Source of the DNA: Streptomyces sp. SM1
Lineage (GTDB): Bacteria > Actinomycetota > Actinomycetes > Streptomycetales > Streptomycetaceae
Length of the DNA stretch: 35,388 nt
Direction of reading: 5' to 3'
Assembly: GCF_002910825.1 (NCBI RefSeq)
Contig: NZ_NEUB01000580.1
Coordinates: 1 to 35,388 of the forward strand
The notes beneath the pieces are model-generated. The model made no database searches. It saw only the letters and a list, made by a program, of their open reading frames with translations, and was not told where the DNA came from. Shown piece by piece: positions 5,633 to 20,271 of the stretch. The stretch's first letter is position 1, and each line of letters opens with the position of its first letter. The position numbers and the translations under genes are program-made.

Positions 5633-5704
5633 GCCCCCGTAGCTCAGGGGATAGAGCAACGGCCTCCGGAGCCGTGTGCGCAGGTTCGAATCCTGCCGGG
5701 GGCA
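5633..5704 (+). tRNA. tRNA-Arg (anticodon CCG)
   Basis: A complete 72-nt cloverleaf. The acceptor stem is GCCCCCG (5633–5639) paired with CGGGGGC (5697–5703), with discriminator A at 5704. The D arm is GCTC…GAGC, the anticodon stem ACGGC/GCCGT encloses the loop CTCCGGA (anticodon CCG, reads CGG), and the T arm GCAGG/CCTGC encloses TTCGAAT. CCA is not encoded. The 3' part from 5660 is also the attachment site of the integrated element, and integration keeps the gene intact because the element supplies an identical 3' half. Confidence 0.96.
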
Positions 5705-5705
5705 C
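5660..5705 (+). repeat. attL (46-bp att core inside tRNA-Arg)
   Basis: Runs from the anticodon stem through the tRNA 3' end plus one base, and is identical to 20174–20219. The flanking bases differ on both sides of both copies, which defines the 46-bp limit. Integrases of this group use the anticodon-to-3'-end part of tRNA genes as attB. Confidence 0.93.
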
Positions 5706-5722
5706 CTTGCACGAGGTGCCCA

Positions 5723-5962: not shown

Positions 5963-7348
5963 TCAGTTCTCGGTGTCGTCCTCCCCCAGCCCTTGCATGA
6001 TCCGGTCGTTCATCTCCTGTTCCTGGCCGTCGATGCACTTGGCGTAGATCTTCAGGAGCACGTCCACGGAGTGGCCGGCCCGCGCGGCAACCTCCGGGGC
6101 GGGCACACCCGAGTTGAGCCACTGGGAGACACCCGCGTGCCGGAGGTCGTACGGGCGGAAGGCCAGGACCGAGGACACCTGGTCAGGGATGAGCGCCAGT
6201 TCCCGAGCCTGCTTCCAGGCGCGGGAGTACGACGATGCGGCGATCACGTTGCCCCGCTCGCTGGAGAACAGCCGACCGTCGCCCGCCGTGCCGAACTCGT
6301 CCAGGTGCTCGCGGAGCAGCCTCACAAGCGGCGGAGGGATCGGCACGATGCGTACCTCACCGTGGGCCCGTTGCTTCAGGCCGCGCCGGTCGTGCGCCTC
6401 ACCGGAGTCGGTCCACGTCTTCCCTGCCGTGGGGCGGGTCTCCGCCAACTCGATGCGCCCCCAGCCCTGTGCCGGAAGCGCGCAGTCGGAGCGACGAAGG
6501 CCCAGCGCCTCCCCCGGCCTCATGGCCGCGTAGTAGAGACACCCGAAGAACGCCCGCAGGCGCCGGCCACTCGCCCGTTCGTAGCCGCCCACGTAGGTGA
6601 GTGCGGTCAGCAGCTCCCGGGCCTGCCGGGGGTTAACCACCACCCGGCGGTCAACCTCCTGCACCGCCCGCTTGCCCCGCTTGCGCCGGACGCGGCTCAG
6701 CGGGTTGGAGGTGAGGTGTTCCAGCTCCACCGCGAACTCCAGGGCGTTGAAGACGACGGCTCGCCGACGCCGGTAGGTCTGCGTCGCCGCGGGCTTGCCG
6801 TCCAGCCTCCGACTCAATCCGTCGATCAGCTCGTGTGCACGGCTGATCTCTTGCAGCTCGCCGACCGGAAGCGACGCCCTCTCGATCCACCGCACGGCCG
6901 AGGCGATCTCCTCCGGCCGCTGCCTCTCCCTGCGCGGAACGGGCAGGATGTACGAACGCAGCGCCCTCCGCAGCACCTCCGGAGCGGGCCGCCCCCGTCC
7001 CGGTTTGACCAGGACGGGAACGACTGTCGCCAAGGCGTCCGTCATGCTGTCCCGCTGTTTGGCGGACGCCTCCGCCCACCGGGCATCGACGTACTTGACC
7101 GCCAGGTCGAGGAAGGACAGCGCCGCTTTGCCACCCCGCAGGAAGTCGGGCAGTCCGGTCACGGTGTCGAACGGCTCGCCCTTGTCGAGCGCCCGGACGA
7201 GCTTCGCGCGGAAGCGGTCCGCCAGCGCCTTGGTCTTGTGCGACTCGCTGAAGGGCTGACCGTCGACCACCCAGCGCACCAGGTAGGTCGGTTTCTTGGT
7301 GGTCTTGTTGACCGAGAGCTTCCACACGGAAGCCTTGTAGGACTTCAC
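5963..7348 (-). CDS. int: AICE tyrosine site-specific integrase
   Basis: Tyrosine recombinase of 461 residues that integrates and excises the element at the tRNA-Arg att site. The N-terminal 60–230 region is the DNA-binding/SAM-like part; the catalytic domain shows R277 (AAMRPGEALGL), R403 in RPYDLRHAG, H426 (RAGHSVDVLL) and the nucleophile Y435 (KIYAKCIDGQ). The first His of the usual HxxR box is Tyr 400, which is common in actinobacterial integrases. The GTG at 7348 overlaps the xis stop (GTGA), so the two are translationally coupled; an in-frame upstream ATG at 7381 would only add a glycine-rich leader. Position next to attL with a 15-bp terminator hairpin downstream is typical of AICEs. 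Confidence 0.95.
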   Translation of the reverse strand: MKSYKASVWKLSVNKTTKKPTYLVRWVVDGQPFSESHKTKALADRFRAKLVRALDKGEPFDTVTGLPDFLRGGKAALSFLDLAVKYVDARWAEASAKQRDSMTDALATVVPVLVKPGRGRPAPEVLRRALRSYILPVPRRERQRPEEIASAVRWIERASLPVGELQEISRAHELIDGLSRRLDGKPAATQTYRRRRAVVFNALEFAVELEHLTSNPLSRVRRKRGKRAVQEVDRRVVVNPRQARELLTALTYVGGYERASGRRLRAFFGCLYYAAMRPGEALGLRRSDCALPAQGWGRIELAETRPTAGKTWTDSGEAHDRRGLKQRAHGEVRIVPIPPPLVRLLREHLDEFGTAGDGRLFSSERGNVIAASSYSRAWKQARELALIPDQVSSVLAFRPYDLRHAGVSQWLNSGVPAPEVAARAGHSVDVLLKIYAKCIDGQEQEMNDRIMQGLGEDDTEN

Positions 7349-7557
7349 GACGCCACCCCCTCCGCCCGTTCCTCCAACCACTCGTCCAGCACGTCACGCC
7401 GAACCCGCAGCTCACCGTTCGGCAGACGGATACAGGCAGGGGCGATCCGCAGTTCCCTCCAGCGGTAGAAGGTGCGCCGGGAGATGCCGCCCAGTTCGTC
7501 GAGCACCTGCCGCACGGTGAGCAGTTCGGCCGCCCTCGTACGGGTGTCACGCGTCAT
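7345..7557 (-). CDS. xis: excisionase / MerR-like winged-helix DNA-binding protein
   Basis: A basic 70-residue protein with an excisionase-type winged helix: LLTVRQVLDELGGISRRTFYRWRE followed by RLPNGELRVRRDVLDEWLEE. Such proteins bend att DNA and direct the integrase towards excision. The ATG at 7557 (MTRDTRTRAAELL) overlaps the end of repSA by 11 bp; the reading frame is open to 7707 but that part is antisense-like coding of the rep gene's frame. Its end overlaps the int start by 4 bp, so rep–xis–int form one compact operon, as in pSAM2. Confidence 0.92.
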   Translation of the reverse strand: MTRDTRTRAAELLTVRQVLDELGGISRRTFYRWRELRIAPACIRLPNGELRVRRDVLDEWLEERAEGVAS

Positions 7558-8917
7558 GGCGACCACCGCCCTCCCGCACGGAGGCCGCCAGGAGCGCCGC
7601 TTCCGGTGAGTAGCCGCGCCCCGCGTAACGCCAGTAGCCGACCGTGACCGTCGAGTGTTCCGGCAGGCCGAGGGCGTCCCGCTGCTGCTCCGCGCGATGG
7701 TCGGCACGGGCCTGCCGGAGCGCGGTCAGCGTGGTCGAGTAGCGGCGCGACTTGGTGGAGAAGTGGCCGCCGTATCCGAGCATGTGGGCCCAGCGCCGCA
7801 GCCCGAGCGGCACGAACTCCGGCAGGCCTCCGAGCCACCAACACGTACTGATCATGCGCAGCACGTGAGCGCGGACCGGCAACATGACCATGTGCCGTGC
7901 GTGGTGGATACGACCGTCCACGGCGCCGGCGGTCTCCGCACCCTTGGTGGCGTACTTGGCGATATAGCCCGCCACGGCCGCCGCTGAGGCAGGCCGCTCC
8001 CCCGCTGTTCGTCCGGACGAGGTGACCGGCCGTACGTCGACCTGGGTACCGAAGCGCAGCACCCGCGGCCCGATGACGGCCGAGCCGGGGGCGGTCAGCC
8101 GCACCTTTCCGACCACGGCCCGCACGGAGTCCACGAGGAGCGGCACCGTGGCCCAGCCGGGCGGGTGCGAGTCGGGCCCGTCCGGGCCGTCGAGGCGGAT
8201 CACGGCGTGGAAGTGGACCAGGCCCCGGCGCTGGTACTCGGCGACCTTCGCGTACGAGAGCCGGGCGACCTCTCCGAACTCCGTACGTGACAGGCCGACC
8301 CTCCGGGCGACCTCCCGTCGCAGCTCCAGCCCGAACCGGTGCCAAAGCCGACCGGCGGACGCGTGCCAGAGGACCGCCCCCGCGTAGTCGTAGCAGCGCG
8401 GGCAGAGGGGTTCGCCGAGACGGGGGTCGTCCGCCGGGTGGCGCTCCCGGCAACCGGCCAGAGCCCCGTGCGCGCAGTGGTCACCTGCCCGACGAGGCCG
8501 GCAGGGTCGCACGCGCCCGTCACGCTCGCGGCGCGTGTGGACCGGGCCGAACCCGGGGGCGGTGAGCGTGGCGAACACCCGTGGGTGATCCCTCACCGCC
8601 TCGCGGACACTTTTCCCTCCGACGAGCCCGGCCCGGACGAGTTGGTACGTGTCCGCCCGGTACAGGGCCGAGCAGGTCGGGCAGACCGTCGCTCGCCGGT
8701 TGCCGCACGCGGTGAGCAGGCGACCGCCGTAGGCATCCGATCCGTAGGAGAGCAGAGCGGCACCGGTCGTCGTGTCGTAGACGGTGGCCGCGCCGACCAG
8801 GTGAATCGGGTTGGTGCAGCCGCCGAGGCGGACGATGTTCCGGCGCCAAGCCGCGAAATCCGGATCCGAGGCTCTGGCGACGAGCGCCGAGACGCTCCGC
8901 GGAAGAGCTGTGGTCAT
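7547..8917 (-). CDS. repSA: RepSA-like replication initiator
   Basis: A 456-residue initiator related to RepSA of pSAM2, which starts rolling-circle replication of the excised element. Visible features are the cysteine-bearing CGNRRATVCPTCSALYRADTY stretch near the N-terminus, HPRVFATLTAPGFGPVHTRR, the HUH-like metal motif in RRGLVHFHAVIRLDG, and YIAKYATKGAE typical of the family. The ATG at 8917 (MTTALPRSVSALVAR) has GGAGG upstream at good spacing. It starts within the end of the preceding small gene and runs into xis, in agreement with one long transfer/replication operon. A putative nicking tyrosine cannot be fixed by eye. Confidence 0.92.
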   Translation of the reverse strand: MTTALPRSVSALVARASDPDFAAWRRNIVRLGGCTNPIHLVGAATVYDTTTGAALLSYGSDAYGGRLLTACGNRRATVCPTCSALYRADTYQLVRAGLVGGKSVREAVRDHPRVFATLTAPGFGPVHTRRERDGRVRPCRPRRAGDHCAHGALAGCRERHPADDPRLGEPLCPRCYDYAGAVLWHASAGRLWHRFGLELRREVARRVGLSRTEFGEVARLSYAKVAEYQRRGLVHFHAVIRLDGPDGPDSHPPGWATVPLLVDSVRAVVGKVRLTAPGSAVIGPRVLRFGTQVDVRPVTSSGRTAGERPASAAAVAGYIAKYATKGAETAGAVDGRIHHARHMVMLPVRAHVLRMISTCWWLGGLPEFVPLGLRRWAHMLGYGGHFSTKSRRYSTTLTALRQARADHRAEQQRDALGLPEHSTVTVGYWRYAGRGYSPEAALLAASVREGGGRHDA

Positions 8918-9282
8918 CGCTGACCACCTCCGCCGCCGAACGCCTGCCCCATCACGGCCGAGATCCCCTCCGGCCGTGTCTTGGCGCTGAAGCGCAGCGT
9001 CGGGTTGGTGAGCCATACGGCGGCGGCGTGCCGGGGGCACAACCACTGCTCGGTTCCGTCGAGTTCGACGAGGACGATCTGTTCCCGTCCGGCGCAGGTC
9101 GGGACCTGCGCGTCACGCTGCCTGAGGTCACAGACGAGCGGCGGGGATTTGCGCGGACGATGCGCGGTGGACAAAGTGTGAGTACTCCTTTCACTGCTCA
9201 CGTGGCGGATGGAGTGGGTTCCTGACGGGGTCGGGTTTGGCGACTTCGCGCCCCGTCGGGAGCCCGTCGTACGGGCGGTCAT
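8914..9282 (-). CDS. small AICE protein with cysteine/histidine motif
   Basis: Unknown function. The protein holds a possible zinc-binding layout, VCDLRQ…PTCAGREQIVLVELDGTEQWLCPRHAAAVW, and ends just before repSA with a 4-bp overlap. There are two credible starts in the same frame. The ATG at 9282 overlaps the upstream stop (ATGA) and follows GAGGAG, giving 122 residues. A TTG at 9177 behind a strong AAAGGAG gives about 87 residues, LSTAHRPRKSPPLVCDL. I give the longer form; the conserved-looking part begins only after the internal start. Small proteins at this place in AICEs are common and mostly uncharacterised. Confidence 0.7.
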   Translation of the reverse strand: MTARTTGSRRGAKSPNPTPSGTHSIRHVSSERSTHTLSTAHRPRKSPPLVCDLRQRDAQVPTCAGREQIVLVELDGTEQWLCPRHAAAVWLTNPTLRFSAKTRPEGISAVMGQAFGGGGGQR

Positions 9283-9809: not shown

Positions 9810-11129
9810 TCACGGTTCGACGTGCAGTTCGGACAGGGCGGGAGTCAGGTGCGCGTACTCGGCGGCCACGGCTTCCGCGTCCGCTTCCGTGATCAGGTGG
9901 GACCGGGCGCGCTCCCAGCCGTCGCCGGAGGCAAGGACGGCGGTACCGGCCTGCTCCGGGGCGATGGCCTGGGCCGCCTTCAGCGCGTCGGGATTGAGAT
10001 CGCCGAGCGCCATCTCTGCCGTACCGGGGTCGGCCACGCGGTGGCACACCCGGCCGCCCAGTTGCGCCCGCAGAGCCGTGACACCGGGCCCGAGGTCGGA
10101 GCCGACACGCTGGCCGGCCACCACGAGGAACACCCCGAGCGCCGCCCCGAGTTGGGCCAGCCGGATCAGCGCCGTACCGGCCGCGTGCGCTTCGTCCTTC
10201 TCGTTCCGGCTGGCCACGAGGAAGAGTTCCGCGATCTCGTCGACGATCACGACGACGGGGACCGGGCGTTCCTTGTCGGGCAGACCCCAGATGTTCCGGA
10301 CGCGGGCCGCCCGGCAGAGGGACATCCGGTCGAGGGTCAGGTCAACGAGGGCGGTCAGCAGCCGCACTGCTTGCTCTCGGTTCGTCGCGAGGGCGGACAG
10401 CCGAGGCTCGTAGAGGGACAGTTCCATGCCGCCCTTGCAGTCGATGCCGACCAGGGCGACGGGCTGCGGCGCGAGGCCCGCCACGAGGGCGTTGATCAGC
10501 GTCGACTTTCCCGAGCGCGTGGCCCCGACGATCAGCCAGTGAGGGACGCGCCGCAGGTCGACCACCCACGCGGCCCCGGTCTCCAGGGCGCCCACGGTCA
10601 CCCGGAGCAGATGGCCGGGCCCTCGCTGCTTCGGCACCTGCGGGTCTGCCAGCGGGTCGACCGCCGACGCGACGATCCGTACGCCCCCCGGTTTCCAGGA
10701 GGTCACCCGCACCGCGTGCACCTGCCAGCTTTCCGCCATGGCGGGGGCCGCTTTGACGAAGTGCTCCGGCACTTGACCCGGCAGCAGCCTCACGAGCAGG
10801 ACGAAGCCGCCGGAGGTCGGGCGTATGAGCCCCCGGCGAGGCACCCGCGGCTGAGGCGGAGGCGCCCCCTTGCCGACGAGCCCGGACACGACGGTCAACG
10901 CCGGCCGACGGCTCACGGCAAGCCCGCAGCCCGCCATCAGGGGCCGCCAGGTCTGCACGACCCGGAAGGCCACGGCCGGGAAGCCGCATAACAACCACCA
11001 AGCGCCGGGATAGCGGCTGCGCAGGGCCGGGCCCGCCAGAAACAGACCCGGCACCAGCACGGCGGCCACCACCAGAACCCAGCTCGGCCACGTCGCGTCG
11101 GCCGAAGTAGCGGAGGCCAGTTCCATCAC
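9810..11129 (-). CDS. traSA: FtsK/SpoIIIE-type conjugative DNA translocase (TraSA-like)
   Basis: The transfer ATPase of the element. Streptomyces Tra proteins form hexameric pumps that move double-stranded DNA between hyphae, unlike relaxase/T4SS systems. The 439-residue protein has N-terminal membrane segments (about 15–35 and 42–60), a Walker A GATRSGKST at 202–210 and a Walker B VVVIVDE at 292–298, followed by the QRVGSDLGPGVTALRAQLG segment typical of FtsK-like motors. The GTG at 11129 overlaps the upstream stop by 4 bp (an ATG lies one codon later). It is the only large transfer protein in the element. Confidence 0.93.
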   Translation of the reverse strand: MMELASATSADATWPSWVLVVAAVLVPGLFLAGPALRSRYPGAWWLLCGFPAVAFRVVQTWRPLMAGCGLAVSRRPALTVVSGLVGKGAPPPQPRVPRRGLIRPTSGGFVLLVRLLPGQVPEHFVKAAPAMAESWQVHAVRVTSWKPGGVRIVASAVDPLADPQVPKQRGPGHLLRVTVGALETGAAWVVDLRRVPHWLIVGATRSGKSTLINALVAGLAPQPVALVGIDCKGGMELSLYEPRLSALATNREQAVRLLTALVDLTLDRMSLCRAARVRNIWGLPDKERPVPVVVIVDEIAELFLVASRNEKDEAHAAGTALIRLAQLGAALGVFLVVAGQRVGSDLGPGVTALRAQLGGRVCHRVADPGTAEMALGDLNPDALKAAQAIAPEQAGTAVLASGDGWERARSHLITEADAEAVAAEYAHLTPALSELHVEP

Positions 11130-11476
11130 TGCCCGGCCCCCTTACCCGCCGAGGTGGCGGGAGCGCTCAGGGGCCGGATCTCCGCCGCGCGGAACGCGAT
11201 CCCGTGCCGCCCGTCGTTCTCCCACGGCGTGGCGACCAGGTCCCGCACGGCCACGGGCATGCCGAGCTGCACACCGGCCGGCTCACCGGCCACGCTCACG
11301 TTCACGACGTCGGCCGACGTCCCCGCCATCAGGCAGAGACCGACCTGGTACACCGTCTTGCCGGTCTCGCGGTCGACGCGAAGCTGACCGGTCTCACGGT
11401 TGGCGACCCGCGGCGCCGGGGGGACTGCGCAGATGATCCCCGTGTACTTCGCGGTGTCGATCGGAAGGCTTGCCAC
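11126..11476 (-). CDS. conserved AICE protein, first gene of transfer operon
   Basis: A 116-residue protein, MASLPIDTAKYTGIICAVPP…, of a type found immediately upstream of tra in many Streptomyces AICEs; its function is not known to me. It has no membrane segment; the mix of short strands (VYQVGLCLMAG, VVNVSVAGEP, VRDLVATPWE) would suit a small beta-barrel, which is inference. The GTG at 11476 follows GAGGAGAA. As the first gene after the operator region it should be directly controlled by the divergent GntR repressor. Confidence 0.75.
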   Translation of the reverse strand: MASLPIDTAKYTGIICAVPPAPRVANRETGQLRVDRETGKTVYQVGLCLMAGTSADVVNVSVAGEPAGVQLGMPVAVRDLVATPWENDGRHGIAFRAAEIRPLSAPATSAGKGAGQ

Positions 11477-11532
11477 AGTTCGGTTCTCCTCATCACTTGG
11501 GCACCCGAAGGGGAATCCTTCGGGTTGCTAGA

Positions 11533-11581: not shown

Positions 11582-11608
11582 GTTGTCAACTGCCCTGAGG
11601 TGAGGGAA

Positions 11609-11656
11609 GCTTCTTTCTGTCGTGACAGACAGCCATCTGTCACGACAGAAAGAAGC
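11609..11656. promoter_or_regulatory. perfect 21-bp inverted repeat before gntR
   Basis: The left arm 11609–11629 and right arm 11636–11656 are exact reverse complements with a 6-bp spacer. The arms contain CTGTCGTGACAG-type sub-palindromes on each side. The right arm ends 28 bp before the gntR start, so it covers the likely gntR promoter; autoregulation or a transcript hairpin are both possible. Confidence 0.7.
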
Positions 11657-11683
11657 AGTTGTCCACGGCCATGGAGGGCCCGC

Positions 11684-12424
11684 ATGCCGCCGAAGAACAC
11701 GCAGCCGAAGTACCGGCAGATTGCCGACTACCTGCGCGGAGGCATCCTGGACGGCACCTTCCCCTCCGGCCAACCCCTGCCCTCCGAAGAGGCGTTGGCG
11801 AAGCAGTTCGGTGTGACGCGCCCTACGGTGCGCCAGGGCTTGAGCGAGCTACGGGCTTCCGGTCTCGTCGAGGCCATCATGGGCCGCGGAACCTTCGCCC
11901 GCTCCCCACACAGCCGACCTAGTCACACGCGCCCGCGGGGCGTACGCAGAGCATCTGACGGCCGGTACATCGAGGCTGACGGCATCCGCTGGACCGACGC
12001 CGAACCACCGGTAGCCACCCGCACCGACGCCCCGCTTGCCCTCGCGGACCTACTCCGCATCCCGCCGGGCGAGCCCATGTTCACGTACGACGCGTTGCAG
12101 ACGGCAGACCACGGCCACCTCCGCCAGCTCCACCGGACGTACATCCCGTTCTCGATACTCATCGACACCAAGTACGAGGACGAGGCCCCGCCGCCGGCCC
12201 CGGACCTCTACGCAGCGCTTGCCGGCCTGGGCCACGAACTCCACTTCACGGAGTACGTCCGCACCCGCATGCCCCTGCCGGACCAGGCCCAGACCCTCCG
12301 GCTCGCAGACGGGGTCCCGCTGCTGTACGTCATCCGCGTGACCCTCACAGAGGCTGACAGGCCCCTCGCCCTGGAGGAGTTCCACCTTCCGGGCGACGAG
12401 CTGGAGCTGTCGTTCCGGCTGTAG
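11684..12424 (+). CDS. GntR/HutC-family repressor (KorSA-like)
   Basis: A 246-residue regulator with an N-terminal GntR winged helix (about 8–70: YRQIADYLRGGILDG, then RPTVRQGLSELRASGLVEAIMGRGTF) and a C-terminal UTRA effector domain (about 85–240). In pSAM2 the homologue KorSA represses the genes that trigger replication and transfer; this gene sits in the same place, divergent from the transfer operon. The ATG at 11684 follows GGAGGG. The long inverted repeat and paired direct repeats between the two transcription units are its probable operators. The effector ligand is unknown. Confidence 0.92.
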   Translation: MPPKNTQPKYRQIADYLRGGILDGTFPSGQPLPSEEALAKQFGVTRPTVRQGLSELRASGLVEAIMGRGTFARSPHSRPSHTRPRGVRRASDGRYIEADGIRWTDAEPPVATRTDAPLALADLLRIPPGEPMFTYDALQTADHGHLRQLHRTYIPFSILIDTKYEDEAPPPAPDLYAALAGLGHELHFTEYVRTRMPLPDQAQTLRLADGVPLLYVIRVTLTEADRPLALEEFHLPGDELELSFRL

Positions 12425-12791
12425 CACAGCCGTGTCGGGTCCCAGTTGGTTCAGATTTTCTCTACGTCATCAAGGCGGCTCGCTCCGCTCACCGCGCGCG
12501 GCCCGGCCCCCGGCCGGGCCTGCGCTCCTGCCTCCGTCCCGCTCCAGCCCGGCCGGTGCCCGTGCCGCGCCTGGCAGGCGAGCCGAATCCCATGAGTCGA
12601 ATACCGCACACAGGCTGATCAAGGCCAAAACGATGCCTCCGATGGGGGATCGGCCAGCACCGGGATGGAGGGGGCGCCGTCGCCGACTGCGGACCCGTAA
12701 GGGGCGTGCGCGGGGAGCTCCCATCCCGTCCACCGTCGCCCCAGGCGGAGCCGAGCGGACGGGGCCCAACCAGGGCGCGAGCTGAAAAGGA
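12425..12791. other. non-coding region after gntR; candidate cis-acting transfer locus or origin
   Basis: 367 bp without a convincing gene. It holds GC-rich palindromic stretches such as CGGCCCCCGGCCG-like and GGGAGCTCCC (about 12715–12724). Open frames on both strands here are arginine/proline-rich composition artefacts. The position next to gntR, at the junction between backbone and cargo, is where a clt (transfer) site or replication origin could lie, but I found no clear short tandem repeats. Confidence 0.35.
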
Positions 12792-13748
12792 TCACTCATA
12801 GGGGCCGAGGAACCGTGAGCCGTTCAAGTGGATCAGGTGGTCGGGCGCGTCAGCCACCCAGGCTTCGGTCTCCCATGCGAGGTCGGCCAGCCACTTACGC
12901 ATCGTGGCACGGTCCGGGAAGCAGTTCACGAACACCAGCCCTGCTTTGTCCGTCGCGAAGAGTTTCTTTAGGTGCTCACGCCGTCCGAAGTCGATCGGTC
13001 CGTGAGAAGTGACGGCCTCCATCAGGAAAAGCCAACCGCGCTGCTCGTCGTAAACCACGAGGTCCGGGTTTTTGCCGTGCTCGTCAAAGGCCAACCCGAG
13101 ACGTGCGAAGACGTCGTCTTGGCGGATGTCGTAGCGGTGATCCTTGGCGTCCCCCAGGTAGAGCACCTGTCCGCCGGGGGCGAAGCGAGGGCAAAACTCC
13201 TCGACCATGTCCCGGATCAGAGGATTCTGGCCACCGGGAGAGAGGCGAAACAGAGAACCATCAGGAAGCGTGACCGGGAGCATCTGCATCTCGCGGGTTG
13301 CCTTATAAGCGGCCTGCTGGGTGGGAGCCTCGGACACCCAGGCATCGAGGGCATCTTGAAACCCCCGGGTGCCGAAGAGACGCACTACGGACAGAGCAGC
13401 CGGAGCGATCCGGTAGTTGTTCTTGGAGGAGTTGACCGCGCGCCCTTCGGGAGCATCGGAGTTGTGCTCAGCGAACCCCGCGTCGACGAACTGGTGGAGC
13501 GTCTGCTTACGGAAGGTCTCGCGCGAGTTCGGGGCATACCCTTTGTCCCATTTTTCCGCAATGACACCCATGATTTCCGTGACGCCGAGGCGCGGGTTGG
13601 TCGCCGTTCCCCACGGCTTGCCGGGCTCCAGGCCGAGCAGCGCGAGGGCCGTCAGGGCAGATCTGTTATTGCAGCGGATCTTGTCGAAGCCGAAGGCTTG
13701 CAGGAGGGCGCTGGCGTTGTCGACGGATGCTCGTAAAGTGCTGATCAC
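12792..13748 (-). CDS. BsuBI/PstI-family type II restriction endonuclease
   Basis: A 318-residue protein of the BsuBI/PstI endonuclease family, which cuts CTGCAG in the characterised members (R.BsuBI is of nearly the same length). The C-terminal half carries the family block: YLGDAKDHRYDIRQDDVFARLG (197–218), then NPDLVVYDEQRGWLFLMEAVTSHGP split over 227–251, with PD at 228–229 and E244 as likely catalytic acids. The N-terminal half contains predicted DNA-recognition helices. The GTG at 13748 overlaps the methyltransferase stop by 4 bp (GTGA), so the nuclease is made after and coupled to the protective enzyme. The specificity of this copy is inferred, not shown. Confidence 0.88.
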   Translation of the reverse strand: MISTLRASVDNASALLQAFGFDKIRCNNRSALTALALLGLEPGKPWGTATNPRLGVTEIMGVIAEKWDKGYAPNSRETFRKQTLHQFVDAGFAEHNSDAPEGRAVNSSKNNYRIAPAALSVVRLFGTRGFQDALDAWVSEAPTQQAAYKATREMQMLPVTLPDGSLFRLSPGGQNPLIRDMVEEFCPRFAPGGQVLYLGDAKDHRYDIRQDDVFARLGLAFDEHGKNPDLVVYDEQRGWLFLMEAVTSHGPIDFGRREHLKKLFATDKAGLVFVNCFPDRATMRKWLADLAWETEAWVADAPDHLIHLNGSRFLGPYE

Positions 13749-15205
13749 TCCGCTGAGCCTACGACAGCGGGGAACATGTCAGCTACGAGAGCGTCGAGCT
13801 TCGCCTGTTCCGGGAGCCATTCCGGCGCGTTCTGCGCCAAGCGCACCAAGTCGTCACGAGAGGGGAAGGGGAGCGTCTTGACGTCCCCGGCGTTGACCTG
13901 GGTGTGCCCGGAGAAGGTGCGGAAGATCGCGTCGAGCGTCGAGGAGTTCAGCCAGAGCATCAGTCCATGCGCGAGCTGAGGGTCGATAGGTCCCTTCTTC
14001 TCGTGCAGGTAGTTGGTCTTATTGTCCAAGGCGACCGGGCCGTCGTGCTTCCAGACGCCCGCGACCACGCGACGCTTCTCCTCCTTGGCGGAGAAGCGCT
14101 TGATGACGACGTAGTACCCTTCGGGCAGGAGCAATTTGCGGGCGGCCTCGGTGCTAGGGGAGAAGCCCTGCGGCTTCTTCGCGGGGCGCTGCGGCCACTC
14201 GATCTCTCCGCCGCGCACGTTGGCCTGGTAGACCATCGGCACGACACCTTCGGCGCTGAGGTCATCGGTCAAGTGCTCGCGGTTGCGGAAGTCAACCACC
14301 TTGCCCGTACTAACGCCCAATCCCAGGTCGGCCAGAGTGAACGAGGCGGCCGGCGGCACGACAGCGGCGTCATCGAAGCGCACGAACCGCTCTCGGTCCC
14401 CGGGCAGGACCACGGCGCCGAACGGGACGGTACGACGCAGCGGGACGTCGTCGTGTGCGATCGACGCCGACAGGACGACCTCTGGCTGCTGGTCGCCCCG
14501 CGTGCCAGCCACGATGACGTTTTCCTGGAGGACGCCGGTGTCAGCGAAGACTGTGCTGCGGCTCTCGAAGACGTGCAAGAGGTCGAGGCTGGTGCGGTCG
14601 AGCATCCACTGGCGGAACGCGCGATGGTAGGTGCCGTTGGCCCAGGAGCGGGGCACGATGATCGAGATCTGGCCGCCGAGGGCAAGGGCAGCTGTAGCCT
14701 TGGCCCAGAAGGCCGTGTAGACGTTGCTGGTATCGACCAGGTGGTGCGCGATGCGCGTACGGTGCAGGCTGCCTGCGGCGAGCTTTCCATAGGGTGGATT
14801 GGCGACGACGAGGTCGAACGGCCCGTCGATGAGTGCGTCATCGTCGGTGAGGTAGTCGCCCTGCACGAGGTCGAACGTGGTGCCGTAGGTTGCCCTGCAT
14901 TCCTCGAGCGTGGTGCGCAGGTAGGGCATGACCTGCGGGTCGGTCTCCACAGCAACAACGTGAACGTCGAGGTCAGGGCGCTCTTCATGCAGTCGAGTCA
15001 CCAGTGCGGCGGTCAGCGAGCCGACCCCAGCGCCGGGGTCCAGAACGCGCACGGTATTGCTCAGCGCATCTAGGCGAAACATCGAGGCGATCAGGTCGGC
15101 GGCTGGCGCAGGGGTGAAGAACTGCCCCAGGGCGGCCTGAGTCCGAGGGGCAAGGACGCTGAGCGCCTCCACCCGTCGTGCCTCGGTGTTCTCAATCAGT
15201 TTCAC
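13745..15205 (-). CDS. N6-adenine DNA methyltransferase of the BsuBI/PstI-type system
   Basis: The protective partner of the adjacent nuclease. The 486-residue protein has the gamma-class layout: LGQFFTP (26–32), SAM-binding motif I LDPGAGVGSL (55–64), catalytic motif IV NPPYG (136–140), and a C-terminal target-recognition half. M.BsuBI and M.PstI are about 500 residues, a good fit. The frame is open to a GTG at 15229, but the GTG at 15205 (VKLIENTEARR) has AGAGGAGC at ideal spacing, so I chose it. A consensus-like promoter and a 19-bp palindrome lie directly upstream. No separate C (controller) gene is seen. Confidence 0.9.
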   Translation of the reverse strand: MKLIENTEARRVEALSVLAPRTQAALGQFFTPAPAADLIASMFRLDALSNTVRVLDPGAGVGSLTAALVTRLHEERPDLDVHVVAVETDPQVMPYLRTTLEECRATYGTTFDLVQGDYLTDDDALIDGPFDLVVANPPYGKLAAGSLHRTRIAHHLVDTSNVYTAFWAKATAALALGGQISIIVPRSWANGTYHRAFRQWMLDRTSLDLLHVFESRSTVFADTGVLQENVIVAGTRGDQQPEVVLSASIAHDDVPLRRTVPFGAVVLPGDRERFVRFDDAAVVPPAASFTLADLGLGVSTGKVVDFRNREHLTDDLSAEGVVPMVYQANVRGGEIEWPQRPAKKPQGFSPSTEAARKLLLPEGYYVVIKRFSAKEEKRRVVAGVWKHDGPVALDNKTNYLHEKKGPIDPQLAHGLMLWLNSSTLDAIFRTFSGHTQVNAGDVKTLPFPSRDDLVRLAQNAPEWLPEQAKLDALVADMFPAVVGSAE

Positions 15206-15217
15206 GTCCGCGCTCCT

Positions 15218-15236
15218 CTCACGGGGCACCCGTGAG
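15218..15236. promoter_or_regulatory. palindrome between promoter and start of methyltransferase gene
   Basis: CTCACGGG-gca-CCCGTGAG, 8-bp arms with a 3-bp spacer, lies in the predicted 5' leader and abuts the ribosome site of the methyltransferase gene. It could be an operator for autoregulation or a leader hairpin that tunes translation. Confidence 0.5.
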
Positions 15237-15250
15237 GCTGTTGGTGGAGA

Positions 15251-15279
15251 TACATACTAAGTCCGCCACCCCGTGGCAA
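15251..15279 (-). promoter_or_regulatory. promoter of restriction-modification operon
   Basis: On the minus strand, -35 TTGCCA (15279–15274) and -10 TATGTA (15256–15251) are separated by 17 bp. The start of transcription would be about 40 nt before the methyltransferase GTG. This is a better sigma70-type match than most promoters in the window. Confidence 0.55.
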
Positions 15280-16244
15280 CGTCGGGAGGAAGGCGCCGAA
15301 GGACACGAGAGCCTCAGGGCGGCCCTAAACCGTTTGCCATGCGCTGATCATCCATAGCACCACCAAAAGCGCCCCCAGGCTGCCGCCGGGCACAGACGCT
15401 CAGACTGACGGTGGTCTCTCCGAGTTTCGACTTTGATGCAGCGTGCCCTGTCAGGCAGGCCGGATGAACATGTGTGTCCGCTGGACCGGCGTAAGGGCTC
15501 AGGCAGCGTGGCCTGTGCCGGCCGCCGCGGCTTGCTCTGGTCAACGGCATTGCAGCGTGGCCAAGGACGGCGGGGGTACAGCGAGGCATACGCGTGCGTC
15601 GTCGGTCGGTGTGCCCGCCGTCGTGGCTGACTGTCGTCGGCTGAGCTTCAGGCAGGACATCGAAGATCTCGACGGGTGACGATTCCCACCGGGTGCACGT
15701 AAGCGTGGAGGCTGACAGCGGTCACATCCCATAGTCAGCCTCTGCGTTCACACAACCACCACGCCACAGGCGGACGCACAGCTCCCCAGCAACTGGTACG
15801 CGCCCAGCACAGGCCCGCATCGCCCTCACGGCAGCCTGTATGGCCCCAACGACCGAGCTCTTCAAGGCTACGGATCAGCGGCACGAGGCAAATAGCCGCG
15901 TGCCACAACCGTGCCAGATGCAGGGTGCAGCCACGGTCAACACCGGTGCCCCGCGGTCGAGTAGCCGCTCGCTTCCTCGGCCGGCGAAGCCGCAGCTCAG
16001 AGCCGAGATCACCCAGCCTCTCTCCTAATGCGGTGGTCACGCATACATGCGGCCTGCCGTTCGTCCGGGCTGCGGCGCTGGGGCGCCGGTCCCGGCCGAG
16101 CGGCAGGCCGAGGAACGCATCAAAGGGCGTAAGGACAGCGATGAGCCCCTTGCAGCCGTGCCGAGGCACAATGCCGCAAGGGGCCAGATTGTCTGTTGAC
16201 GGGGCTGCGTTTGGATCGCGCCCACCAGGCACCCGAGGTGCGGC
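15280..16244. other. 965-bp stretch without a recognisable gene
   Basis: Several short open frames occur on both strands, but none has a good ribosome site with a credible protein; a 165-residue minus frame (15735–16232) is compositionally odd and resembles nothing I know. The base composition is less GC-biased by codon position than in the surrounding genes. It may be degenerated cargo. One strong hairpin is listed separately. Confidence 0.5.
16145..16184. terminator. hairpin downstream of the paralogue operon
   Basis: GCCCCTTGC (16145–16153) pairs with GCAAGGGGC (16176–16184), and the interior GTGCC/GGCAC also pairs. It lies 60 bp beyond the stop of the minus-strand gene 16245–16565 and is probably its terminator. 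Confidence 0.55.
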
Positions 16245-16565
16245 TCAGGCCGCAGGTGCTCGCCGCCGGGTGGGCATAGATGGTTCGGCCGCCGTGTCGC
16301 GTCGCTCAGCTTCCAGTCCTACCGTGATCAGCTTTGCCAGCAGTTCCGCTGCCTCAGGGCGAACGGTACCGAGTTGCACCAAGCCGTCACCGAAGACGTT
16401 CACGTCGGCGACCAGACCGGGGAAGTCGGAGTCCAGTCCGAACAACACCAGCTGATCGGCCAGAGTGCCGGCGCTTCGCCGGGCGCGGTTCCAGCCGCGA
16501 ACATACGGCACACCGGGCGAGAGATCTTCCGCGCGCCGGGCCACCACTCCTCGCCGGTCGGTCAT
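16245..16565 (-). CDS. unknown protein, paralogue of the next upstream gene
   Basis: A 106-residue protein of unknown function, starting MTDRRGVVARRAEDLSPG. Its central part, DSDFPGLVADVNVFGDGLVQ followed by LGTVRPEAAELLAKL, aligns with EKDFPYLRADLNAFGHGLVE and LGRVSPDTAERLAEL in the protein of 16570–16890, so the two arose by tandem duplication. No membrane segment or catalytic motif is visible. The ATG at 16565 lies 4 bp after the preceding stop, and GAGGAAAGGG covers the ribosome site. It is the last gene of a three-gene operon. Confidence 0.75.
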   Translation of the reverse strand: MTDRRGVVARRAEDLSPGVPYVRGWNRARRSAGTLADQLVLFGLDSDFPGLVADVNVFGDGLVQLGTVRPEAAELLAKLITVGLEAERRDTAAEPSMPTRRRAPAA

Positions 16566-16569
16566 AACG

Positions 16570-16890
16570 TCAGTCCCTTTCCTCGTGTTCGTTGGTGGCC
16601 ATCGGCGTGTGCTCGAAGTCCTCACGGTCCATCTGGAAGCCGCTTGCGAGCGCTAGGCGCAGGAGTTCTGCGAGGCGTTCGGCTGTGTCGGGGGACACCC
16701 GACCCAGTTCGACGAGACCGTGTCCGAAGGCGTTCAGGTCCGCCCGCAGGTAGGGGAAGTCCTTCTCCAAGCCAGCCCGGACGAGGGCGTCCCGTAGTGC
16801 AGTGGTCGCGTTGCGGGCCGCGTACCATCCGTCGCTGTCGAGGGGCGACCAAGTGGCAGCGTCGTGCCCGTTGGTCGGCTCACCCTGCAT
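16570..16890 (-). CDS. unknown protein, tandem paralogue
   Basis: A 106-residue protein, MQGEPTNGHDAATWSPLDSD…, with helical core ALRDALVRAGLEKDFPYLRA and DLNAFGHGLVELGRVSPDTA, matching the downstream gene. The C-terminal tail (FEHTPMATNEHEERD) is acidic. The function is unknown; a small helical binding protein is all that can be suggested. The ATG at 16890 overlaps the end of the primase/polymerase-like gene by 11 bp, indicating coupled translation. Confidence 0.75.
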   Translation of the reverse strand: MQGEPTNGHDAATWSPLDSDGWYAARNATTALRDALVRAGLEKDFPYLRADLNAFGHGLVELGRVSPDTAERLAELLRLALASGFQMDREDFEHTPMATNEHEERD

Positions 16891-17440
16891 CGGTGGTCGG
16901 CTCCTCGGGAAGCGCAGCGACTGCCGCGTACGGAGTCGGGTACTGCTCGTCGAAGCGGTCGAGTCTCGCCAGGAGTTCCGCGGAAGCCACCAGCGCAGTC
17001 GCCATGGCGACCGGTCGCAACGGGTTGGCCTCCGGTCGACGCATCGGTGCGCGGAGCCACTGGTAGCGGTCGCCGGACAACGGGATCGGGCCGGGCACGA
17101 CGACGGCGCACTCCTGGCCGAGGTACCGGTAGGCCGGCGGGGAGGAGGTCTCTCGTTCGAGGTAGTGCGTGAAGGACTCGCGGCTCTTCGAGCCGAGGAA
17201 GAAGCCGACGCGTTGTGCCTTGCGGTCGATGACCGAGGGCCCGAACGGCAAGCCGCTGCGCAAGAGCCGGTCGAACATCTCCAGCCCGAGGCGCTGTTCC
17301 ACGCTCACCACGTCGAAGAAGCGGCCGGTTGCCAGCAGGCAGGGCGTTCGCGGGTCGTCCGCCCACATCTCCCGGCACGCCGCCGGATCGTCCGCCGCCG
17401 CAGACAGCCACTCGATGCCCCGCCTGGTCATCCTCTGCAC
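16880..17440 (-). CDS. bifunctional primase/polymerase N-terminal-like protein
   Basis: A 186-residue protein resembling the Prim-Pol-like proteins found in Streptomyces accessory regions: RGIEWLSAAADDPAACREMW, CLLATGRFFDVVSVEQRLGL, VVVPGPIPLSGDRYQWLRAP, then RPEANPLRPVAMATALV. The FFDVVSV stretch corresponds to the place of the acidic catalytic pair in true Prim-Pol enzymes, but only one Asp is present, so activity is doubtful. The GTG at 17440 follows GAGGGTGAG; an ATG at 17431 lacks a site. It is the first gene of the three-gene operon and is divergent from the XRE regulator. The family call is moderate; the biological role is unknown. Confidence 0.6.
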   Translation of the reverse strand: MQRMTRRGIEWLSAAADDPAACREMWADDPRTPCLLATGRFFDVVSVEQRLGLEMFDRLLRSGLPFGPSVIDRKAQRVGFFLGSKSRESFTHYLERETSSPPAYRYLGQECAVVVPGPIPLSGDRYQWLRAPMRRPEANPLRPVAMATALVASAELLARLDRFDEQYPTPYAAVAALPEEPTTDAG

Positions 17441-17698
17441 GTCGTCTCACCCTCAGTAGGACTACGGTGCGGCCCTGGTGCCGCTGTGCGTCCAGATTCG
17501 TGGGCCAGCCCTTGACCTGGGCAGATGACGAGAGGTGACGGGGGATGACGCGGGAGGACATGACGCGTCACCCCCTGTCCTCCCGTTCCCCGCAGAGGAT
17601 CCCTGGTTACTACCTGCACGAAGCGATGACCAGCACGTACAGTCAGTGACGGAATCCCAAGTCGTCACACCGGCATCACGCGAGGAGTGAAGGCCGCT

Positions 17699-19060
17699 TT
17701 GAAGCCGACCAGTGTCCGCTTACGTGAAGCTCGCACGGGCCGGGGCTGGAGTCAGCCGCGGTTGGTCAGGGAGTTACGCCAGGTCGCCGCCCAGCGTGGT
17801 CACCAACTCCCGTCGGACGCCAGTGTGAAGCGGCGTATCGCGAGTTGGGAGAACGGCCACAGCGCCCCGGACGACTTCTACGGCCCTTTGCTGTGCGACG
17901 CGTTCACCACCAGTGCCGTCGAACTCGGCTTGAGCCACGGCCAGCCTCAGGACAGCGCCCTACTTGATGCCGCGTATCCCGCCAGCCCGGACGACGCCAT
18001 CCAGACGGTGCGCCAACTGTGGCGTGCCGACCTCAACCAGTACGACCCGTTGCTCACGGCGGAGCCGTCCGAGCCGGCGTGGAACGAGGCATCCCTACGG
18101 TGGTTGGTCGCGCCCGGGCCCGGCGTCCCCCGGCAGCGGACCGAAGGCACCCGAGTCAGTCTCGGCGACGTGGCAGCCATAAAGACCACGGCGGACATGT
18201 TCGCCCAGCTCGACGACCAGTTCGGTGGGGACCACGCGCGTCATGCGGTGATCCAGTACCTCAGCAACGACGTGGCCCCGCTCCTACGAGGTCGGTACAC
18301 CGAACAAGTGGGCAGGGCCCTGTTCTCCACCGTGGCGGAAGCGACCCTCCTTGCCGGGTGGATGTCCTACGACGCCTGTCACCACGGGCTCGCCCAGCGG
18401 TATTTCCTCCAGGCCCTCCGTCTCGCCCAGGACGCCAACGACCGCCGGCTCGCGGGAAGCATCCTCTCCGCAATGAGCCATCAGGCGACCTTCCTGGGGC
18501 GATACACCCAGGCCGCAACCCTCGCCCGTGCCGCCCTCATGGGGATCTCTCCGGTAGCCACGCCGACATTGCGTGCGCAGTTCCACGCGATGGAGGCCCG
18601 CGCACTCGCGCGTACTGGTGACGTCGCTGCCTGCGAGGCCGCCCTGAGCGCGGCGACCAAGGCCCTCGAAAGCCAGAACAACGAGGACGAGCCGGAGTGG
18701 ATCAGCTACTTTGACGACGCCGAGCTTGCCGCTGAGGCCGCCCACTGCTTCCGGGACGTCAACAGCGCCCGCCGAGCCGTCGTCCACGCAGAGAACGCCA
18801 TGACCGGCAGCCACGTACGGAGCGACTTCTTCGCAACCATGGTCTTGGCGGATGCCCATCTGCGGGCCGGAGACGTCGAGGAGGCGTGCCGGGTGGCACT
18901 CGATGCGTTGGATCTCGGAGAGCAGCTCAAGTCGGCGCGATGCGTCAGCTACCTTGCCGAGTTCCGCCGGAACCTGAGCGCATCGGGCCAGAGCAGCGCA
19001 GCGCGTGACCTTGCGGAGCAGGCCGGCGAGAACAGGTTGTGGGTTGCTGCGGGGCGGTAG
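17699..19060 (+). CDS. XRE-family regulator with TPR-like C-terminal domain
   Basis: A protein of about 453 residues. The N-terminus is an XRE helix-turn-helix (KPTSVRLREARTGRGWSQPR … RIASWENGHSAPDD). The remaining 350 residues are Ala-rich amphipathic helices of TPR type (for example GLAQRYFLQALRLAQDANDR, GRYTQAATLARAALMG, ARALARTGDVAACEAALSAA), as in Streptomyces regulators that sense small molecules or partner proteins. The frame is open from a GTG at 17687, but that codon overlaps the GAGGAG ribosome site; the TTG at 17699 (LKPTSVRL) has it at 11 bp and gives the usual N-terminus. It is divergent from the primase-like/paralogue operon, which it probably controls. Confidence 0.85.
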   Translation: MKPTSVRLREARTGRGWSQPRLVRELRQVAAQRGHQLPSDASVKRRIASWENGHSAPDDFYGPLLCDAFTTSAVELGLSHGQPQDSALLDAAYPASPDDAIQTVRQLWRADLNQYDPLLTAEPSEPAWNEASLRWLVAPGPGVPRQRTEGTRVSLGDVAAIKTTADMFAQLDDQFGGDHARHAVIQYLSNDVAPLLRGRYTEQVGRALFSTVAEATLLAGWMSYDACHHGLAQRYFLQALRLAQDANDRRLAGSILSAMSHQATFLGRYTQAATLARAALMGISPVATPTLRAQFHAMEARALARTGDVAACEAALSAATKALESQNNEDEPEWISYFDDAELAAEAAHCFRDVNSARRAVVHAENAMTGSHVRSDFFATMVLADAHLRAGDVEEACRVALDALDLGEQLKSARCVSYLAEFRRNLSASGQSSAARDLAEQAGENRLWVAAGR

Positions 19061-19109: not shown

Positions 19110-20039
19110 TCAGAAGGGGCCCCACTCCTTGCGCCCCTCTCCCGTCCGCAGAGACCGGACCCGTCGGGCGAACTCGGCCGCAGAGCGCTCACTCTCGCCG
19201 ACTTGGTGACCGAGCCACGCCACCATCATCAGTTCCCGGAGGTCGGCCAAGGTCTCGTAGCCGGGCCAGTTCATGAGGTCGAAGCCGTACCGGTGCACGA
19301 AGTCGGCGTACTCCGCTGCCGTGTGCCAGCCGTACCGATCGTAGAAGAGCGGGGTCTGGATCAGGTCCCACTCGCGTGGAGCGAGGGCGAATCCGTCGAG
19401 GTCGATGAGGACGGCGTGACCGTCCCGGTGACGAAGGATGTTCCCGATGCTGGCATCACCGTGGATCATCCCGTAGGGGAGCACGAAGTCCAGCCGGTCG
19501 TACTCCTTGCCTAGCCTCCCTGCCCGTTCCTCCAGGAAGGAGCGGTCTTCTTCGGAGACGGCATCCAGGCCGTCCAGCGAGGCGGACAGCTTGGCCATGG
19601 GGTCGAAGTACGGCAGGCCCAGCGACTCGGGTTCCTCCAGCCAATGCAGCCGGCGGAGCAGGTCCGCCAGCTCGCCGACCGTCGCGTACTCCTCGCGCTC
19701 CTGGACGCTCTCCCAGAAGGTGACAACCAGGCCGCGGACGACGATGGGCTGAGCGACATCGGCTGGCACTCGGGTGGCGGGAAAGTCGACCGTTTCCAAC
19801 CAGCGCGCCACGGCCACGGCCCGTTCCATCTCCGGCAGGACGGCGGGGTCGCGGGCGATACGGACGATGATCGGTAAGGATGCCAGCCGGTAGACCGCGT
19901 TGGATCCCAGCCGCAGCAACTCCGCCCCAGTCGCGTCCAGCCCGGCAGCCTCGCACGCCTCGCGCAGGACGACTGCCACTCCCTCCGCCGTGAACTCCGT
20001 ACCGCCGCCGACCGGTCCCCCGCCACTGCCCGAGATCAT
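19110..20039 (-). CDS. aminoglycoside-phosphotransferase-family kinase
   Basis: A 309-residue kinase-fold protein. The catalytic loop is MIHGDASIGNIL (H193, D195, N200) and the metal-binding motif LIDLDGF (D213, D215), with WDLIQTP following as in the APH/choline-kinase superfamily. Substrates in this family range from aminoglycosides to small metabolites and cannot be read from the sequence. The ATG at 20039 has GGAGG nearly adjacent, which is tight; the frame stays open across attR to 20270, but that extension would read tRNA sequence and is not real. It is the last gene before attR and thus cargo of the element. Confidence 0.82.
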   Translation of the reverse strand: MISGSGGGPVGGGTEFTAEGVAVVLREACEAAGLDATGAELLRLGSNAVYRLASLPIIVRIARDPAVLPEMERAVAVARWLETVDFPATRVPADVAQPIVVRGLVVTFWESVQEREEYATVGELADLLRRLHWLEEPESLGLPYFDPMAKLSASLDGLDAVSEEDRSFLEERAGRLGKEYDRLDFVLPYGMIHGDASIGNILRHRDGHAVLIDLDGFALAPREWDLIQTPLFYDRYGWHTAAEYADFVHRYGFDLMNWPGYETLADLRELMMVAWLGHQVGESERSAAEFARRVRSLRTGEGRKEWGPF

Positions 20040-20085
20040 GCCTCCGACGATACGGCGCAGCCGCACCCCCGGACAGGGCACCTGC

Positions 20086-20113
20086 GTAATAGGGACGTAA
20101 TGATCTTGAGTGG
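20086..20113 (+). promoter_or_regulatory. candidate integrase arm-type site (right arm)
   Basis: GTAATAG (20086–20092) and TGATCTTGAGTGG (20101–20113) repeat the blocks at 5817–5841, with 3 bp more between them. The site is 60 bp inside attR; the left one is 111 bp inside attL. Confidence 0.45.
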
Positions 20114-20173
20114 GGCGGCGCTCCTGCACCCTTCCCTCGCAGGTCAGCGCGCCCGGTGCCACTCGCGCTCTCC

Positions 20174-20219
20174 CGGCCTCCGGAGCCGTGTGCGCAGGTT
20201 CGAATCCTGCCGGGGGCAC
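20174..20219 (+). repeat. attR (tRNA-Arg 3' fragment)
   Basis: Identical over 46 bp to 5660–5705. It lacks the acceptor 5' strand and D arm, so it is not a functional tRNA. It marks the right end of the element. Confidence 0.93.
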
Positions 20220-20271
20220 TCGCCTGGTCACCGAGCAAAATTGCTTCGAGACCTGGGCGGATGCCGACAAA

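What the first reader, a model, noticed from the sequence alone, without database searches (positions are those of the whole stretch)
12792..15205. BsuBI/PstI-type restriction-modification pair as AICE cargo
The nuclease and methyltransferase are recognisable by motif and size, and are coupled by a GTGA overlap with the methyltransferase first. On a conjugative element that enters as double-stranded DNA this could be a stabilising or phage-exclusion module; double-stranded entry also makes the order of expression important.
Basis: partly seen in the sequence, partly recalled or inferred. Interest (0 to 1): 0.6.

Follow-up and report, generated by a model that had tools for sequence, protein, structure and literature searches.

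The report
Restriction-modification pair in mobile-element defence slot
A Streptomyces mobile DNA element carries an intact PstI-like gene pair that should mark its host's DNA and cut unmarked foreign DNA, and it sits in a slot where sister elements carry other likely anti-virus systems.

Summary
Window 12792-13748(-) encodes a 318-aa BsuBI/PstI-type endonuclease and 13745-15205(-) a 486-aa adenine methyltransferase, methyltransferase first, overlapping by GTGA. The nearest solved relative is SdaI, 54% identical. The pair lies in a complete-looking 14.56-kb AICE between identical 46-bp tRNA-Arg repeats.

New here: (1) the pair is a discrete ~2.48-kb module. It recurs in six other Streptomyces loci at 90-93% nucleotide identity, mostly with unrelated flanks. 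All seven copies keep both frames and the overlap, omega 0.08-0.29. (2) Three other copies lie between tRNA-Arg att copies in elements without relatives of the window's Rep or Tra. (3) In AICEs with the same transfer protein, the pair's place is a variable cargo slot. None of 23 such slots, as far as held, has this pair; 16 hold a gene matching PADLOC defence models (type I-IV R-M, DRT, TIR, STAND and others).

Most likely function: exclusion of phage and foreign DNA at a CTGCAG-centred site, with self-maintenance as by-product. Six- versus eight-base (CCTGCAGG) specificity is unresolved. The enzymes are ordinary; the slot is the interesting part.

The parts
12792..13748 (-). Type II restriction endonuclease, BsuBI/PstI family, 318 aa (wHTH N-domain, PD...E C-domain)
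   Evidence: Pfam PF06616/PF17728; SdaI 2ixs 54% identity; Foldseek 2ixs prob 1.00
13745..15205 (-). DNA adenine N6-methyltransferase, 486 aa, GTG start
   Evidence: Pfam Eco57I/N6_Mtase; PADLOC PDLC03227 591 bits
13745..13748 (-). GTGA stop/start overlap of M and R
   Evidence: kept in the six other close copies
15206..15240 (-). M leader: AGGAG Shine-Dalgarno and dyad CTCACGGG-TGC-CCCGTGAG; the dyad is only partly kept in other copies
   Evidence: sequence; alignment and folds
12764..15240 (.). Discrete R-M module shared with six other loci at 90-93% nucleotide identity
12768..16050 (.). Variable cargo slot of the AICE family, between GntR and the Prim-Pol end
   Evidence: backbone homology ends at 12484-12768 in 23 sister AICEs and resumes at 16050-16658 in 19 of them
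15517..16035 (+). Conserved noncoding pieces (D 15517-15674, F 15899-16035) that recur in other slots
5633..5706 (+). tRNA-Arg(CCG), contains attL core 5660-5705
   Evidence: ARAGORN; repeat
20174..20219 (+). attR core, identical to 5660-5705
5963..7381 (-). Tyrosine integrase, 472 aa
   Evidence: Pfam Phage_integrase E 1.9e-11
7547..9046 (-). RepSA-type replication initiator
   Evidence: Pfam RepSA E 1e-156
9810..11129 (-). FtsK/SpoIIIE-like transfer protein (Tra)
   Evidence: Pfam E 5.4e-30
11126..11476 (-). SCO3933-family protein
   Evidence: NCBIfam E 1.1e-32
11660..12424 (+). GntR/UTRA regulator
16880..17440 (-). Prim-Pol-domain protein
17687..19060 (+). NsdA-family regulator
19110..20270 (-). 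APH-family phosphotransferase domain protein at the right end (ORF runs over attR)

Best explanation
It is an intact type II restriction-modification pair of the BsuBI/PstI family, carried as exchangeable cargo in the defence slot of a tRNA-Arg AICE. M is made first and methylates adenine in a CTGCAG-centred palindrome. R is translated by coupling from the overlapping GTG and cuts unmethylated copies, so incoming phage or foreign DNA is restricted while host and element are protected. Because modified DNA must stay methylated, the pair should also penalise loss of the element. Shown here: gene identity, order, overlap, purifying selection, modular recurrence, element anatomy, PADLOC matches in many sister slots. 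Inferred: enzymatic activity, adenine target, CTGCAG core, translational coupling, anti-phage effect, penalty on loss.
For: Family domains and SdaI match. GTGA in all 7 close copies; omega (own NG86 script) 0.11-0.275 for M and 0.075-0.293 for R over 21 pairs each. Complete-looking AICE. Slot analysis: 16 of 23 sister slots with a PADLOC match at E<=1e-5 against 1 weak partial match (26 bits) among 10 genes outside the slot. CTGCAG is adenine-methylated at 98.8% in an E. coli strain with a BsuBI/PstI R-M in a prophage and at 0% in a related strain without it (PMC3893438, passages).
Against: No methylation, cleavage or phage data. The nearest solved relative, SdaI, has another (8-bp) specificity as recalled. 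Seven of 23 slots gave no PADLOC match among the genes scanned; only 40 slot genes, picked mostly by size, were scanned, and 3 of the 23 gene matches (25, 38 and 38 bits, partial) are no or little better than the control's. The 10-gene control is small.
Confidence: 0.75

Rival explanations
1. The pair is chiefly a selfish addiction module: loss of the element dilutes M and lets R kill the cell, so it stabilises the AICE, and defence is secondary.
For: Three other copies sit between tRNA-Arg att copies in elements where tblastn finds no relative of the window's Rep or Tra and at most integrase fragments, yet R-M is intact. The module recurs in six other loci with mostly unrelated flanks, as a selfish module would.
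Against: The loci were found by searching for R, so keeping R-M is partly ascertainment, and those elements may carry mobility genes of other families that tblastn with the window's genes would miss. The slot it occupies in sister AICEs holds defence families not usually counted as addiction modules (DRT, TIR, STAND).
Confidence: 0.15
2. Same system, but with the octamer specificity CCTGCAGG of SdaI (a variant of the best explanation, not an alternative to it), so about 210 sites per genome need protection instead of about 1968.
For: R clade is sister to SdaI plus L022 (100/96). M is 61% identical to the methyltransferase beside an R 93% identical to SdaI, in the putative target-recognition part (61.5%) about as much as in the catalytic part (63.9%). 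Site counts.
Against: SdaI and its near-ortholog L022 carry G74, D78 and R85 in the predicted recognition helix; of the 29 other rows 28 carry N74, 25 T/S78 and 24 H85. At all 7 helix positions where the window differs from SdaI it equals L044. But it equals SdaI at all 6 where it differs from L044, and the counts (7 v 6 in the helix, 33 v 58 outside) are not significant by themselves.
Confidence: 0.3
3. The pair is a silent passenger, frames open but R not expressed or inactive.
For: No sigma-70-like promoter passed the scan of 12400-16300. AICE cargo often decays (PMC9513070, passages).
Against: Both frames intact in 7 of 7 copies with omega below 0.3. A TTGCCA-17-TATGTA element upstream is visible by eye and shared with L004; it is below the scan's threshold.
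Confidence: 0.08

Closest known systems
SdaI (PDB 2ixs) and its near-ortholog in S. torulosus (L022, 93% to SdaI)
   Same: Two-domain BsuBI/PstI-family endonuclease, 54% identity over 312 columns; Foldseek prob 1.00. In L022 M precedes R and a tRNA-Arg att core lies 340 bp beyond R.
   Different: SdaI carries G74/D78/R85 (window numbering) in the predicted recognition helix, and the SdaI-L022 branch is long; recalled to cut CCTGCAGG.
BsuBI/PstI-type R-M of an E. coli phage record (L044); a prophage system of this family is linked to CTGCAG methylation in PMC3893438 (passages)
   Same: 47% identity in R, M next to R, same residues at the 7 recognition-helix positions where the window departs from SdaI.
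   Different: M only 39% identical; carried by a phage. Whether L044 is the enzyme of the paper, or shares its specificity, was not tested.
R-M and abortive-infection cargo of AICEs (PMC9513070; section 15 and passages seen)
   Same: That paper reports R-M and AIPR among AICE cargo, TraB transfer of double-stranded DNA, and decay of AICEs.
   Different: The parts I saw name no single conserved defence slot and no BsuBI/PstI pair.
Defence hotspots of P2 and P4 (PMC9122126; abstract and outline seen)
   Same: Element backbone with a place of variable anti-phage systems.
   Different: Phage and satellite, not AICE; shown there by experiment, here only by sequence.

Membership tests
BsuBI/PstI type II endonucleases | BsuBI_PstI_RE and N-terminal HTH domains over the Pfam cut-off | tested here: met
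   178.8 and 124.5 bits against 27
BsuBI/PstI type II endonucleases | Conserved PD...E catalytic residues | tested here: met
   P228, D229, E244 invariant in the 14- and 16-row alignments; that they are catalytic is by motif only
BsuBI/PstI type II endonucleases | Adjacent adenine N6-methyltransferase | tested here: met
BsuBI/PstI type II endonucleases | Recognition and cleavage of CTGCAG (or an extension) | not testable with these tools
   Helix comparison leans to CTGCAG; 0 CTGCAG in the 14.56-kb element against 5.2 expected, but other palindromes and AICEs without R-M are also short of sites
AICE | Site-specific integration in a tRNA with direct repeats | tested here: met
AICE | Tyrosine integrase, RepSA-type Rep, FtsK-like Tra | tested here: met
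AICE | Excision and conjugal transfer as double-stranded DNA | not testable with these tools
   needs mating assays
Defence hotspot of a mobile element | Conserved flanks, variable content | tested here: met
   left flank in 23 of 23, right flank found in 19 of 23 (in L089 only 265 bp); the window module in none
Defence hotspot of a mobile element | Content enriched in defence genes | tested here: inconclusive
   16 of 23 slots and 23 of 40 scanned slot genes match PADLOC at 1e-5, against 1 of 10 control genes, weak. Points to enrichment, but the control is small and the genes were picked mostly by size
Defence hotspot of a mobile element | Systems shown to protect against phage | not testable with these tools
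   needs phage assays
Addiction module | Post-segregational killing | not testable with these tools
   needs curing experiments

The most novel reading that the evidence does not exclude
A widespread AICE family at tRNA-Arg(CCG) keeps one dedicated, fast-exchanged defence slot between its GntR gene and its Prim-Pol/NsdA end. Cargo enters it as small units, some bounded by attachment sites copied from other tRNA genes (Ser-GGA, Gly-CCC and probably Pro-GGG), a cassette-like route for moving defence systems among Streptomyces. The PstI-like pair is one such cargo.
Probability: 0.5. Interest if true: 0.65.

Novelty: new member of a known kind. Interest (0 to 1): 0.45.

Why it matters
The enzyme pair alone is ordinary. 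What it points to is a fixed place in an AICE family where defence systems seem to be swapped. If true, that gives a simple way to collect new anti-phage systems from Streptomyces (read the slot between two conserved flanks), and a test of whether these elements pay their way by protecting the host. It also shows a PstI-like pair reaching several strains as a ~2.5-kb unit.

Tried and rejected
Site avoidance as a specificity test: the element has 0 CTGCAG (Markov expectation 5.2; P 0.029 from the genome rate), but 15 sister AICE stretches without R-M also have 48 against 73.6, GAGCTC is 2 against 6.7 in the element, and of the three other R-M elements one has 0, one 1 and one 3 CTGCAG; inconclusive.

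Leader dyad of M as a regulator: perfect in the window, only partly kept in the other six copies; not claimed.

Rfam on 11000-20300: four hits, all below the gathering score, two of them on the tRNA remnant of attR.

Viral contigs: no relative of R. Phage records: three E. coli phages only. Plasmids: 152 records, all under 60% identity.

AlphaFold model of R: mean pLDDT 84.9 but pTM 0.64, and 2ixs overlays with TM 0.50 and rmsd 16.5; it supports the fold of the parts, not the domain arrangement. Used only to place helix 73-89.

Literature: searches for SdaI with CCTGCAGG, AICE with defence systems and hotspot and AICEs with phage defense listed no paper. Searches were read as listings, except for the three papers opened: PMC3893438 (passages), PMC9513070 (passages and section 15), PMC9122126 (abstract and outline). 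None of the papers listed but PMC9122126 was opened.

Full report
What is there. The endonuclease gene runs 12792-13748 and the methyltransferase gene 13745-15205, both on the minus strand. R has both Pfam domains of the BsuBI/PstI family (E 6e-53 and 3.7e-36) and M matches N6-adenine methyltransferase families. PADLOC gives a type II REase model at 443 bits and a type II MTase model at 591 bits. In the PDB R matches SdaI over 313 residues, E 1.5e-102; a direct comparison gives 54% identity over 312 columns. P228, D229 and E244 (PD...E motif) are invariant in the alignments.

Setting. A 46-bp repeat, identical at 5660-5705 inside tRNA-Arg(CCG) and at 20174-20219, bounds 14.56 kb. Between the copies lie a tyrosine integrase, a RepSA initiator, an FtsK/SpoIIIE-like Tra, an SCO3933-family protein and a GntR regulator, then R-M, then a Prim-Pol protein, an NsdA-family regulator and an APH-domain protein. 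This is an AICE by content; transfer was not tested. The genome is 8.06 Mb in 1057 contigs and holds one PF06616 gene. Its genus is Streptomyces by inference: two genomes given as same genus have hit contigs of the same lengths as named Streptomyces records (listed).

The module. In the evenly drawn Streptomyces sample 14 of 392 genomes have a PF06616 match, 13 over the cut-off. Nucleotide similarity to the window covers about 12764-15240 at 90-93% and then stops in L002, L005, L006 and L090; in L004 it runs on to 15321. L003 also shares much of the AICE. L005 and L090 share 3.9 kb with each other, and L002, L004 and L006 share a little more downstream. All seven copies keep M at 486 aa, the GTGA overlap, and R at 318 aa (325 in L004); mean dN and dS are 0.038 and 0.231 for M and 0.043 and 0.264 for R, with omega 0.075-0.293 (window frames). 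The pair is therefore kept by selection and recurs as a unit.

Other elements with it. L003, L005 and L090 carry two copies of the tRNA-Arg att core about 9.9, 7.2 and 9.2 kb apart around the module. With the window's proteins as queries tblastn finds no Rep or Tra in them; L003 keeps 46 residues of integrase, L090 two integrase pieces, L005 none. They look decayed, though mobility genes of other families would be missed. L022, whose R is 93% identical to SdaI, also has the att core 340 bp beyond R. So 5 of 8 loci with this R branch hold the tRNA-Arg core; L002, L004 and L006 do not in the 17 kb held. These loci were found through R, so survival of R-M there is suggestive only.

The slot. Tra of the window has relatives (E<=1e-150) in 26 of 392 Streptomyces genomes, own included. 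I fetched 24 of the other 25; G024 was left out because its contig begins near Tra on the slot side, and L087 ends at the slot, which leaves 23 slots. In all 23 backbone homology runs through Tra and GntR and stops between 12484 and 12768. In 19 of the 23 it resumes at 16050-16658, at the Prim-Pol/NsdA/APH end (in L089 only 265 bp); in L077, L081, L085 and L094 no such match was found in the stretch held, the first two being cut by contig ends. None of the 23 shows the window module. Forty slot genes, picked mostly by size, were run against PADLOC at E<=1e-5: 9 of 10 matched, 5 of 10, 1 of 10 and 8 of 10, that is 23 of 40, in 16 of 23 slots. Three of these 23 matches are weak and partial (25, 38 and 38 bits, in L094, L075 and L096), each beside a strong one. 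The slots with a match are L075 (type II MTase and a weak REase_II), L076 (DRT UG23, 649 bits), L078 and L079 (type I R-M), L080 (type IV, 949 bits), L081 (PDC-S32, 154 bits), L082 (PDC-S60, partial, 85 bits), L083 (TIR effector, 125 bits), L084 (STAND_TPR, 389 bits), L085 (PglX, 1691 bits, but the right edge of that slot was not found, so the gene may lie outside it), L092 (NsnA, partial, 107 bits), L093 (PD-Lambda-5, 650 bits), L094 and L096 (type III MTases), L095 (PDC-S57, partial, 85 bits) and L098 (PDC-M68A and endonuclease-effector models, partial, 93 bits). No match among the genes scanned: L074, L077, L086, L088 (a NACHT protein by Pfam), L089, L097 and L099. Control: 8 chromosomal and 2 AICE-backbone genes of the window gave 1 weak partial match of 26 bits. 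Not every slot gene was scanned. The choice of large genes and the small control limit the enrichment claim, but type I, II, III and IV R-M, DRT and TIR matches in one place of one element family are hard to get by chance.

Specificity. Family members recalled from the literature recognise CTGCAG (PstI, BsuBI) or CCTGCAGG (SdaI). PMC3893438 (passages) reports 98.8% of CTGCAG adenine-methylated in an E. coli strain with a BsuBI/PstI R-M in a prophage and 0% in a strain without it. In the tree of R the window clade is sister to SdaI plus L022 (100/96), these two on a long branch. In the predicted recognition helix (73-89) the window differs from SdaI at 7 of 19 positions (73-91) and equals the phage enzyme L044 at all 7; it differs from L044 at 6 and equals SdaI at all 6. 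The changes special to SdaI and L022 (G74, D78, R85) fall where 28, 25 and 24 of the 29 other rows carry N, T/S and H. Outside the helix the window goes with SdaI more often (58 v 33). M is closer to the SdaI-type partner (61%) than to that of L044 (39%). I lean to CTGCAG, about 2 to 1. The host has 1968 CTGCAG and 210 CCTGCAGG, so a recipient of that kind would need so many sites protected at entry; M-first order and coupling fit such a need.

How it likely works. Donor DNA arrives already methylated if transfer is double-stranded, as stated for TraB in PMC9513070 (passage). M, first in the operon, methylates the recipient's sites; R follows by coupling at GTGA. Established cells then restrict unmethylated phage and plasmid DNA. 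I recognised no controller (C) gene beside the pair, but small ORFs were not searched for one. These steps are inference.

Novelty. R-M among AICE cargo is already reported (PMC9513070, section 15). A fixed defence slot in an AICE family was not found in the library; most subscription papers are not in that library. The enzyme pair is a new member of a known family; the slot would be a new instance of a known kind (hotspots of P2 and P4, PMC9122126, abstract and outline).

Noticed in passing
L022:2491-2645 and 11029-11175; L076, L080, L084, L085, L086, L089, L096; own genome C762:7398, 11011, 14027 and C477, C696, C1041: ~140-bp noncoding repeats (B, C) in the slots end in the anticodon arm of tRNA-Ser(GGA) and tRNA-Gly(CCC); in the own genome ARAGORN finds those tRNAs at one of the three copies of each arm, the other copies carry the arm without a whole tRNA. 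They look like att sites of tRNA-targeting integrases; C762 holds three tRNA-Ser arms about 3.0 and 3.6 kb apart in one orientation.
   Followed up: partly
L022:302-438, 2119-2256, 4244-4382, 12066-12202; L075-L077, L079, L082, L085, L086, L095: Repeat A, 14 copies in 9 loci; its 3' end resembles a tRNA-Pro(GGG) anticodon arm (recalled; the exact 15-mer is absent from the own genome). Read, every copy in an AICE-family locus has the same orientation relative to the backbone.
   Followed up: partly
L080:3920-6925: The type IV (Mrr) gene at 4120-5868 lies between two same-orientation copies of repeat C (3920-4051 and 6791-6925), as a cassette would.
   Followed up: no
window 15517-15674 and 15899-16035: Noncoding pieces D and F recur in 11 other loci (D) and 4 other loci (F); all D copies have one orientation relative to the backbone or att core, read. 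In the own genome D-F pairs lie twice in C696, and one more D in C734. Function unknown: att site or origin are candidates.
   Followed up: partly
L003:9033, L074:12303, L079:12882, L085:5594, L086:3331, L087:3415: A 44-bp hairpin with 11-bp arms (10 paired in L085) lies at the left edge of the slot in five loci and about 7 kb from GntR in L085; it is missing in the window, where the R-M module begins.
   Followed up: no
   Followed up: no
L023:8001-8096: Streptomyces sp. ISL-96 matches only the last 32 codons of R plus the module's downstream edge: probably a remnant of a lost module.
   Followed up: no
L013:7950-8924: R relative in a deltaproteobacterial MAG is split into two open stretches, perhaps a pseudogene or assembly error.
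   Followed up: no
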